Under the pieces are notes generated by a model. That model was not told where the DNA came from and did no database searches. It worked only from the letters and a program-made list of their open reading frames with translations. From the NCBI GenBank assembly GCA_032209605.1, contig JASFXZ010000092.1, positions 62,001-126,000 of the forward strand: DNA of 64,000 nucleotides, read 5' to 3'. Origin of the DNA: Mactromeris polynyma. Lineage: Eukaryota; Mollusca; Bivalvia; Venerida; Mactridae. Shown in pieces: positions 46,418 through 49,500 of this stretch. Numbering within the stretch: the stretch's first letter is position 1; every line of letters begins with the position of its first letter. A program made the position numbers and the translations under genes.

Positions 46418-46507
46418 TTAAAGAAGGACACATTTCCTTTTCTTCTGTGGTTCTGGGGGCTCTAGTGCGGCTAATATCGCTTCATCAAATACATTCTTCA
46501 GTCCTTT
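46418..46507 (-). CDS. Cdc42: Cdc42 distal alternative terminal exon (tail ...CVLL)
   Basis: Starts after the - strand acceptor ATTTCCAG and encodes KGLKNVFDEAILAALEPPEP, then QKKRKCVLL and stop. The CVLL box fits geranylgeranylation. The ending is the type of the ubiquitous vertebrate isoform. Confidence 0.93.
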   Translation of the reverse strand, partial: KGLKNVFDEAILAALEPPEPQKKRKCVLL

Positions 46508-49500
46508 CTGGAAATAGAGTAACAGAACCATGCAAAGCTTTGATATACGTAAGAAAAACAGAACAGAAAGTTGTATAATATACCATTCAAGTGCAGGTGC
46601 ACTAGTTTTGAGAATAAGCAGTTGTAAGTTCAAGTCAGTTTGCCAAATTGTAAGCCAGTGCTTCAACCAACTTTGATACAATACATAATGAAAAAAAGAA
46701 ACATCAATAACATGTCAACATTTATCAACCTATCAAACAAGAAAGCTACGCCTGAAGCAATATGAGAGGATACCCAGGGTATATTTTGGGAAGATGAATC
46801 ATACCCTTCAAATTGAGAATTTTTACATTCAAATTTGGAAAATATGTTTTTTTTGGTATTAGGAATTTAGCTGAATAACGGCTACAAAAACAGCTGAAAA
46901 TCCCCTAATACCAATAAATCAGCCAATAAGAGACTTCAGTCCATGCTCAGTGTTCAAAGAAGTTTGAAGAAAATTGACAGGCAAGAAATCATAGATAAAA
47001 TATAAAGATTTGATTGCTTGAATTTCATCGAGTAGTCAAAGCCAACCTAAGATAGCAAATAAATATCACAGACAGAAACTTCAAGAACAATTTGATGAAT
47101 AGAGAGTATAAAAGTTCCTTGTCAGCCAATTGTTTTAATATTGAATGAATAAATCCATTCTTATTCAAGTCTTTTTGACTTGTAGCATGAAAAACACAAC
47201 AAATGAATCCATAAAGTCAAACAAACCTTTATCAAAATAAGACTTCTATGTTGCTTAATTTGCCGATCAGGTACATTTACAATTATTTAACTAAACAGTA
47301 CAATACGGTAAGTTACAAGATACAATAATGAAAACAAAAGACTAGAACAATTTTAATTCAGACATCTCGCATTATATTGTTAAATAAATAATTTCATAAA
47401 GCAACAAATTTATGAATAATTTCATATTCCAAATTGATTAGTAGAGTTTCTTTGACTATTTTATAAAAAAAATCAAGAGCAGTCTAGTAATTGTAATCCT
47501 TGGATGGGTTTGATAAAATTATCAAATACTAACAAAAAATGACAAATTTGTGAATTAGGTAATCTGGAAAAAAATACAGTAATAAAATGGACACCACCAA
47601 CAGTGTTAGATTTTCCCTGATGGAAATGTGTACCAATGAAAAGCAATACAATACTGGTATTACACTGGCACAGTCTAATGTCACAATAGCTACACATAAA
47701 CACATATATATCCAGCGGCTTACTAAATATAGCCGTATAACTATAAGCCATGTGGAATTATAACAATAAACATTTCCCCTTCTTTTGAGTTTCTGGGGGT
47801 TCCAGGGCGGCTAGTATGGCCTCGTCAAACACATTCTTAAGTCCTTTCTGCCAACAAAATTACAAAATATAACAACAAACCGAATGACGATATGATACAG
47901 AAATAAAATTTTCTACGTTCGAGTGTAGCAGCTAAGAAGAAAATTATTTCCTCTTGTTTATAATGTAATAACCACCAGGTTAAACACATGACTATTTTGC
48001 GCACTTAGCATTTGAAAGGCTTTCAGCTTTGGGGAACCAATGTGTTCACTTCGGCTTTATTTGTTAGTGAACTTTACTAGAAAAGTATTTTTAGTGAAAA
48101 TATGCTGCTTAATGTAAGTATATGAAATGCATCGTGAATGTATTTTCCACCTGCTAAGGAAGTATTCATTTTGAAAGTTAAGAATACATGCCTGTGTATA
48201 ATTATTATAAGGGTATGAATGTATTGAGTGAAATGTTGATGTATTGAAATGTTGTGAATATCGGTTTTACCCATGTGCTTTCTCCATCATGAGATTTCCA
48301 AATAACAAATTTGAAATATTATTACTGTTTTGTTGTTTTCTATATAAGGTTATGGAATGGTATTCAGGGAACTACAAATTCAGTAATGATTTGACAGTAT
48401 ATCATATATGTATAGAGAATATGTTTTCTCAATGAGTTTTCCAGGCTTCATAAAACAGTACTAACAATTCTTTTTACTGGTTACAGATGATTTTCACGCA
48501 TGCCGAAAAGATTGCAATAGTCTATTTATATGTCAAATAAACACAGACAATGGACCCCTTCTGATGATAATTATCTAGTACTATTGGATTCTTTCCCAAA
48601 TTAGACATACCGGTAAGCAACAGGATTGGACAGTTTTTGCCTAAGGCGGAAAAAAACCACGGAAAAAACAGTGAACTTGGACACATAAACTCCACTTGAG
48701 CACCGTGTCACATGGAATATTAACAATATCCTTACGTAATATACACAAAAATAGTAATATACTGAATGATTTGCAACGATTGATTTAAACAAGCACTTCT
48801 CTATTTTCCGGAATCGAGTCCTTAAGTACCTCACAAATTTCGAATTATTGTTGATTTTGTTTTTGTAATAACTGCAAGTCATTAAACAATGTATCTCTGA
48901 TTTTTTGTTTCATTTGATGCATTCAGTTGAATGTTATTGAACGTCACATCATAACCTCAGTCAATTGGAATGCAAAGGGAGGTAATCTGAAGAAATCTAC
49001 ACAATGATATCAGATATGCGATTTTACCATAATGCTGCACAATTTGAAGAACAAATGTGGATTATTGTGCAGATGTTTGACACTATATGTTCTTAAATGT
49101 TAATGCAGTCTTTTACAATAATTCACCATTTACACATACTAACGTTAGTTTTACACATAGGGCCTGTAACATGAAATTTTGTAGTCAGTTCTGGACTAAA
49201 CTACACACCATCATACCAGGACAAAAAGACTGTGAACCCAACCGTATATGTAAAACTTGACATTCAGTAAATTATATAATGATGAACTACAAGGTGCTAT
49301 GGACAAGCACAAGCCTTAAGTATATCATTGTGTTACAACCTGCAAGGCAGCAATCCTAGTTTTTTTATAAAGACAGAAACTGCACTGAAATAAATTACAT
49401 ACAACCCTCACCGTTTTAAAAAAAAAGGTTGTTAAAGTACAAACCTGTGTAAGAGCAGAACATTCCACATATTTGACAGCACGTAATTCTCTTGCCAATC

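What the first reader, a model, noticed from the sequence alone, without database searches (positions are those of the whole stretch)
46418..47847. Two alternative Cdc42 terminal exons with different lipid-attachment tails
Seen: two 90-nt exons 1.25 kb apart, same phase, both starting KGLKNVFDEA. The upstream one ends ...PPETQKKGKCLLL, the downstream one ...PPEPQKKRKCVLL. Silent sites have diverged, but only about four residues differ, so both tails look constrained. Known: vertebrate CDC42 also has two alternative last exons, an upstream brain one ending in ETQ..KRKCCIF and a downstream ubiquitous one ending in EP....CVLL. Inferred: order, ETQ/EP signature and CVLL ending match, which suggests the exon pair may predate the split of protostomes and vertebrates, with the palmitoylated CCIF tail being a later change on one side.
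Basis: partly seen in the sequence, partly recalled or inferred. Interest (0 to 1): 0.75.

Follow-up and report, generated by a model that had tools for sequence, protein, structure and literature searches.

The report
Two alternative Cdc42 tail exons, bivalve
A clam-like animal's gene for the cell-polarity switch Cdc42 has two old, intact versions of its last exon, an arrangement that papers describe as a chordate speciality, but both versions predict the same kind of lipid anchor and a shared origin with the vertebrate pair is not shown.

Summary
A complete Cdc42 gene lies on the minus strand: three shared coding exons, then two alternative 90-nt last exons with phase-0 GT-AG junctions. The proximal exon (47847-47758) ends ETQKKGKCLLL; the distal one (46507-46418) ends EPQKKRKCVLL. 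They share 26 of 29 residues. Synonymous codons are as divergent as saturation predicts (13 of 26 identical, 11.1 expected), dN is 0.087, and similarity ends near the exon edges. So this is an old, selected pair, not a recent copy or a decaying exon.

"Different lipid tails" is overstated: both have one CaaX cysteine ending in Leu, so both predict geranylgeranylation. The changes are T182/P182, G186/R186 and CLLL/CVLL.

Common descent with the vertebrate brain/ubiquitous pair is possible but unproven. Only T182 is informative, it recurs elsewhere (12 of 135 K163 tails), the vertebrate R163 and second Cys are absent, and trees on 29 residues do not decide. Two papers state that non-chordates have one Cdc42 form, so this gene is a likely counter-example if transcribed. 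Expression could not be tested.

The parts
51675..51779 (-). Cdc42 coding exon 1, aa 1-35 (ATG at 51779); a CAG acceptor 5' of the ATG suggests a non-coding first exon further up
   Evidence: tblastn and splice junction reading
50358..50540 (-). Cdc42 coding exon 2, aa 36-96, identical to human over these 61 residues
49445..49642 (-). Cdc42 coding exon 3, aa 97-162 (ends ...CSALTQ, donor GTTTGT)
47758..47847 (-). proximal alternative last exon, aa 163-191 + stop, KGLKNVFDEAILAALEPPETQKKGKCLLL; acceptor TTGGCAG, pyrimidines at 12 of the 20 positions before it
46418..46507 (-). distal alternative last exon, aa 163-191 + stop, KGLKNVFDEAILAALEPPEPQKKRKCVLL; acceptor TTTCCAG, pyrimidines at 15 of 20
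47352..47357 (-). ATTAAA, first of the two common poly(A)-signal hexamers after the proximal stop (position 401), followed by a T/GT-rich stretch; candidate 3' end of the proximal mRNA (second ATTAAA at 47134-47139). No AATAAA lies between the two last exons
   Evidence: hexamer scan; inference
46386..46395 (-). overlapping AATAAATAAA just after the distal stop (another AATAAA at 46351-46356); candidate poly(A) signals of the distal mRNA
   Evidence: inference
47718..47723 (-). GTAAGC, the only GT[A/G]AG donor-like site in the 1,250 nt between the last exons, beginning at the 35th base after the proximal stop; would allow the proximal exon to be spliced to the distal one as 3' UTR
   Evidence: speculative

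Best explanation
This is a bivalve Cdc42 gene with two mutually exclusive last exons made by an old tandem duplication of the final coding exon. The pre-mRNA would be spliced from exon 3 either to the proximal exon (with its own poly(A) site) or past it to the distal exon. The cell would thus make two 191-aa Cdc42 proteins with the same GTPase body and different hypervariable tails. Both tails would be geranylgeranylated at Cys188. The distal one (KKRKCVLL) has one more basic residue and the better CaaX substrate; the proximal one (T182, KKGKCLLL) has a weaker polybasic patch. The pair would therefore tune membrane and phosphoinositide affinity, RhoGDI exchange or location rather than switch the kind of lipid. 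Shown here: exons, frames, junctions, constraint, age near or beyond synonymous saturation. Inferred: transcription of both, splicing mode, prenylation and functional difference. Whether the duplication is shared with chordates is open; an independent old duplication in the mollusc or lophotrochozoan line is somewhat favoured.
For: Complete gene with correct junctions and two intact tails. NG86 dN 0.087, dS 2.76 (LWL85 0.075, 1.39) between the exons. 13 of 26 conserved residues use the same codon against 11.1 +/- 2.35 expected at full saturation with this gene's codon use. Similarity of the two regions ends at or within about 20 bases of the exon edges. The gene most like human Rac1 in the same assembly shows one last exon in the 30 kb read, so the doubling is not a general feature of its Rho genes (one control gene). 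Human GGTase-I in yeast modified CVLL fully but CLLL only about half (passages of PMC11152559). The polybasic residues 185-187 are reported as essential for the distinct membrane place of mammalian CDC42b, and a CDC42b mutant with CVLL in place of CCIF still went to the cell edge (passages of PMC9663532).
Against: No transcript evidence for either exon. No AATAAA follows the proximal exon before the distal one, only two ATTAAA. No retrieved protein carries the proximal tail (0 of 303, or any K163 tail with ETQ), although these are capped lists of 90%-identity cluster representatives, which would hide a full-length isoform, and the window's own proximal exon has a stop five codons upstream with no start codon between, so a simple ORF caller would probably miss it too. 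The same yeast study found CLLL and CVLL modified by human farnesyltransferase as well, so the choice of lipid is not certain. With 29 codons the saturation estimate is coarse.
Confidence: 0.68

Rival explanations
1. The exon pair is ancestral to bilaterians: the proximal ET exon and the distal EP exon of molluscs and vertebrates are each orthologous, the vertebrate proximal exon later gained R163 and the palmitoylated second Cys, and most other lineages lost the proximal exon.
For: Same order along the gene and the same 162/163 junction; T182 and Q183 shared with vertebrate brain tails (6 of 23 distinct R163 tails are ETQ); fish cdc42-like tails combine R163 and ET with single-Cys CLLL/CVLL/CILL, so the Cys pair is not fixed even in vertebrates; the 23-row animal tree puts the window proximal exon beside the vertebrate ET group at 59/77 support; silent sites indistinguishable from saturation.
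Against: Support is not significant: holding the two window exons together costs 0.82 lnL, AU p 0.36. In the 28-row tree neither grouping is rejected (prox+brain costs 3.0 lnL, p 0.063; prox+distal 7.1, p 0.16) and the exon fell next to fungi, a sign of weak signal. T182 occurs in 12 of 135 K163 tails. Of 84 tail ORFs not preceded by exon-3 sequence, among 120 listed of 277 hits to the proximal query, 0 of 77 with K163 have T182; the 6 with T182 all have R163, though the ORF filter is biased. The window distal exon, not the proximal one, carries the KRK of vertebrate brain tails.
Confidence: 0.2
2. The proximal exon is a relic that is no longer used.
For: No transcript evidence; weaker pyrimidine tract (12 against 15 of 20) and no AATAAA behind it.
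Against: Open frame, CaaX box and acceptor are intact while silent sites look saturated; dN/dS about 0.03-0.05, which an unused exon would not keep.
Confidence: 0.06
3. The proximal exon is not terminal but a cassette exon: spliced through a donor 35 bases after its stop codon into the distal exon, which then serves as 3' UTR.
For: The only GT[A/G]AG site in the 1,250 nt begins at the 35th base after the stop; no AATAAA in the gap; a junction so near the stop would escape the 50-nt rule of nonsense-mediated decay (recalled rule).
Against: The site TTA|GTAAGC lacks the exonic AG; ATTAAA with T/GT-rich sequence behind it is a possible poly(A) site; mouse exon 6 has its own cleavage and polyadenylation site (passages of PMC4870516).
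Confidence: 0.12

Closest known systems
Vertebrate CDC42 exons 6 (brain, CDC42b) and 7 (ubiquitous)
   Same: Same gene, proximal ET tail and distal EP...CVLL tail in that order, tails of the same 29 residues; the same exon boundary after residue 162 is partly recalled
   Different: Window proximal exon has K163 not R163, one Cys (CLLL) not CCIF, and G186; palmitoylation is not predicted; neuronal use and PTB control unknown
Teleost cdc42-like paralogue tails (R163, ETKxKxKCLLL/CVLL/CILL)
   Same: T182 with a single-Cys CaaL tail
   Different: R163 and K183; listed as a separate 'cell division cycle 42, like' protein, whose exon layout was not examined
KRAS exons 4A/4B
   Same: Alternative last exons that change only the membrane-targeting tail of a small GTPase (passages of PMC9882654)
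   Different: Arose in jawed vertebrates by capture of an NRAS exon (same passages); 4A adds palmitoylation (recalled); here both tails look geranylgeranylated only
Tardigrade Hypsibius Cdc42 gene model P0005
   Same: One gene model carries two copies of the last-exon motif
   Different: Tails unrelated to the window's; may be an independent doubling; not studied further

Membership tests
Cdc42 (Rho family GTPase) | Ras-type GTPase fold with Cdc42 rather than Rac/Rho sequence | tested here: met
   PF00071 176.6 bits; tblastn of human Cdc42 100% over aa 36-96 and 84% over 96-162; best PDB matches of a human core with the window's distal tail are Cdc42
Cdc42 (Rho family GTPase) | C-terminal polybasic stretch and CaaX box | tested here: met
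   KKGKCLLL and KKRKCVLL
Alternative terminal exon pair | Two in-phase last exons with acceptors and own stop codons behind one shared donor | tested here: met
Alternative terminal exon pair | Both used in mRNA | not testable with these tools
   no RNA reads available
Vertebrate-type CDC42 exon 6/7 pair | Proximal exon with R163 | tested here: not met
   window proximal exon starts KGLKNV; all 6 distinct ETQ tails found have R163
Vertebrate-type CDC42 exon 6/7 pair | Second Cys in the proximal CaaX box (CCIF/CCLF), palmitoylated | tested here: not met
   CLLL
Vertebrate-type CDC42 exon 6/7 pair | Proximal ET, distal EP, in that order | tested here: met
Vertebrate-type CDC42 exon 6/7 pair | Common descent of the duplication | tested here: inconclusive
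Vertebrate-type CDC42 exon 6/7 pair | PTB-repressed, neuron-selective proximal exon | not tested
   only simple motif counts were made: no CTCTCT or TCTCT at either exon, and TTCT 3 times at the proximal against 6 at the distal

The most novel reading that the evidence does not exclude
Alternative Cdc42 tails predate the protostome-deuterostome split: the proximal ET exon is an old bilaterian exon that molluscs keep in a single-Cys, geranylgeranyl-only form, and the palmitoylated brain tail of vertebrates is a later change of it. This would overturn the printed statement that the second Cdc42 form arose in chordates.
Probability: 0.18. Interest if true: 0.7.

Novelty: new variant of a known kind. 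Interest (0 to 1): 0.45.

Why it matters
Two recent papers state that only chordates have a second Cdc42 splice form (PMC9663532 and PMC9772827, passages seen; the source they cite, Boureux 2007, is not held here). PMC9772827 adds that TC10 appeared together with it in chordates, while PMC4669188 lists a Tc10 gene in three bivalves (section 9). A mollusc gene with two constrained last exons means either that the pair is much older than thought or that last-exon doubling of Cdc42 happened more than once. Either answer bears on how one polarity GTPase is sent to different membranes, and gives a natural pair of tails that differ in charge and CaaX strength without palmitoylation.

Tried and rejected
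Recent local duplication: rejected, since silent sites look saturated and the flanks share no similarity beyond about 20 bases at the acceptor (repeat finder gave one family, 111 nt, 76%). Paralvinella P0003, the top protein hit, looked like a joined exon pair but is a tandem Rac-like model. Deciding origin by a tail tree: undecided in both runs (LG+G4; 28 rows; 23 rows, from which the two fungi, Lepeophtheirus, Tinamus and Andrena were dropped); the group 'window distal + vertebrate ubiquitous' was rejected as an exclusive clade (p 0.0003), but other animals' EP tails were left outside it, so this says little. Relatives' DNA: viral contigs gave 0 loci; genome contigs gave 8 bacterial Cdc42-like loci and no animal DNA; no relatives of the window's genome are held. 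The bivalve Rho paper PMC4669188 (passages and section 9) reports Cdc42 ORFs of 226 aa in two scallops and two 191-aa oyster Cdc42 entries of equal mass and pI with 5 and 3 exons; at the four places where its main text has 'splic' or 'isoform' (three of them in the reference list), alternative splicing of Cdc42 is not mentioned.

Full report
What is there. The window carries a complete Cdc42 gene on its minus strand. tblastn of human Cdc42 finds coding exons for residues 1-35, 36-96 and 97-162 and two separate copies of the last exon; reading the junctions gives phase-0 GT-AG introns throughout. Spliced to either last exon, the gene encodes a 191-residue protein. The proximal exon, 47847-47758, ends ETQKKGKCLLL and the distal, 46507-46418, ends EPQKKRKCVLL. 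They differ at three residues, 182, 186 and 189, and at 20 of 90 bases.

Where it comes from. The window is part of a 792.8-Mb assembly in 299 contigs. Over the last 46 residues of exon 3 the protein is nearest to Mya arenaria (3 of 46 differ; the next best of 165 proteins compared differ at 6), so a bivalve is likely. The last-exon DNA of each kind occurs once in the assembly, with the limit that this search did not even report the sister exon.

Age and constraint. Between the exons dN is 0.087 and dS 2.76 by NG86 (0.075 and 1.39 by LWL85). Of 26 residues that agree, 13 use the same codon; 11.1 +/- 2.35 would be expected if codons were redrawn from this gene's usage, 9.4 +/- 2.3 from uniform usage. 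Similarity ends at the exon edges in blastn and about 20 bases upstream of them in the ungapped repeat search. The pair is therefore old relative to silent-site decay, and both frames have been kept. Twenty-nine codons cannot turn this into a date.

What the tails predict. Both end in one cysteine followed by L-L-L or V-L-L, the CaaL type served by GGTase-I. In humanized yeast CVLL was fully and CLLL about half modified by human GGTase-I; human farnesyltransferase modified both as well in the same reporter system (passages of PMC11152559). No second cysteine is present, so the palmitoylation of vertebrate CCIF is not predicted. The proximal tail has one basic residue fewer (KKGK against KKRK). 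In mammals residues 185-187 are reported as essential for the distinct membrane place of CDC42b, and a CDC42b mutant with CVLL still went to the cell edge (passages of PMC9663532). I infer that the two mollusc forms differ in membrane affinity, not in lipid.

How the choice could be made. The proximal acceptor has a poorer pyrimidine tract (12 against 15 of 20); in mouse, exon 6 likewise has a weaker acceptor than exon 7 (passages of PMC4870516). Between the exons there is no AATAAA; two ATTAAA begin 401 and 619 bases after the proximal stop, the first followed by T/GT-rich sequence. A single donor-like GTAAGC 35 bases after the stop leaves open a cassette mode. AATAAATAAA follows the distal stop closely.

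Is it the vertebrate pair? For: same junction, same order, T182 and Q183. Against or neutral: Q183 is in both window exons. The junction also precedes unlabelled genomic tails identical to those of Timema and Drosophila (P0232, P0296), while unlabelled ORFs with coral-like tails read across it without an intron (P0027, P0084). R163, found in all six distinct ETQ tails, is absent. T182 recurs in 12 of 135 distinct K163 tails, five of them labelled fungal (158 clean distinct tails from 303 proteins, 21 proteins not clean; the set was drawn with the proximal tail as query and so favours T182). A search aimed at short genomic ORFs listed 120 of 277 hits; of 84 not preceded by exon-3 sequence, 77 have K163 and none of these T182, while the 6 with T182 all have R163. 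That negative is weak, because the window's own proximal exon would probably not be called as an ORF (upstream stop without a start between). Trees do not decide: with 28 rows prox+brain costs 3.0 lnL (p 0.063) and prox+distal 7.1 (p 0.16); with 23 rows prox+brain is in the best tree at 59/77 and prox+distal costs 0.8 (p 0.36).

Fish 'cdc42-like' tails join R163 and ET to single-Cys CLLL, CVLL or CILL, and the Erpetoichthys one has CCLL. So the second Cys varies among vertebrate ET tails; which state came first was not polarised here.

Control. The gene most like human Rac1 in the same assembly has one last exon within the 30 kb read.

Literature. Two papers state that non-chordates have one Cdc42 form (PMC9663532; PMC9772827; passages only). 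[quoted passage not shown] The original source was not readable. KRAS4A/4B is the nearest well-traced parallel (PMC9882654, passages).

Verdict. The exon pair is real, old and under selection; the mechanism is an ordinary one known from vertebrate Cdc42 and KRAS, in a place where the papers seen here say it should not be. Common descent with the vertebrate pair is a fair hypothesis at about one in five.

Noticed in passing
L001-L008: Eight bacterial MAG contigs (five Robiginitomaculum, one each of Maricaulis, Marinicaulis and Verrucomicrobiaceae) encode Cdc42-like GTPases, 47-61% identical over the best segment.
   Followed up: no
window 45430-45560: Two full and one partial head-to-tail copies of a 55-56 base unit (starts at 45432, 45487, 45543) in the region after the Cdc42 gene, seen by eye and spaced.
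   Followed up: partly
window 7675-8949 (-): 424-residue open frame with a family 2 glycosyltransferase domain (PF13632, 103 bits).
   Followed up: no
L013, L014, L015 (G000:C112 near 9.98-10.03 Mb) and G000:C223 5.57-5.69 Mb: Clusters of open small-GTPase frames without introns; the three C112 copies are nearly identical to each other and 38-39% identical to Cdc42.
   Followed up: no
protein P0005 (Hypsibius exemplaris): Tardigrade Cdc42 gene model holds two copies of the last-exon motif with unrelated tails, a possible independent doubling.
   Followed up: no
proteins P0016, P0035, P0059, P0091 (named cdc42-like) and P0103 (named cdc42): Fish proteins that pair the brain-type R163/ET tail with CLLL, CILL, CVLL or CCLL instead of CCIF.
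   Followed up: partly
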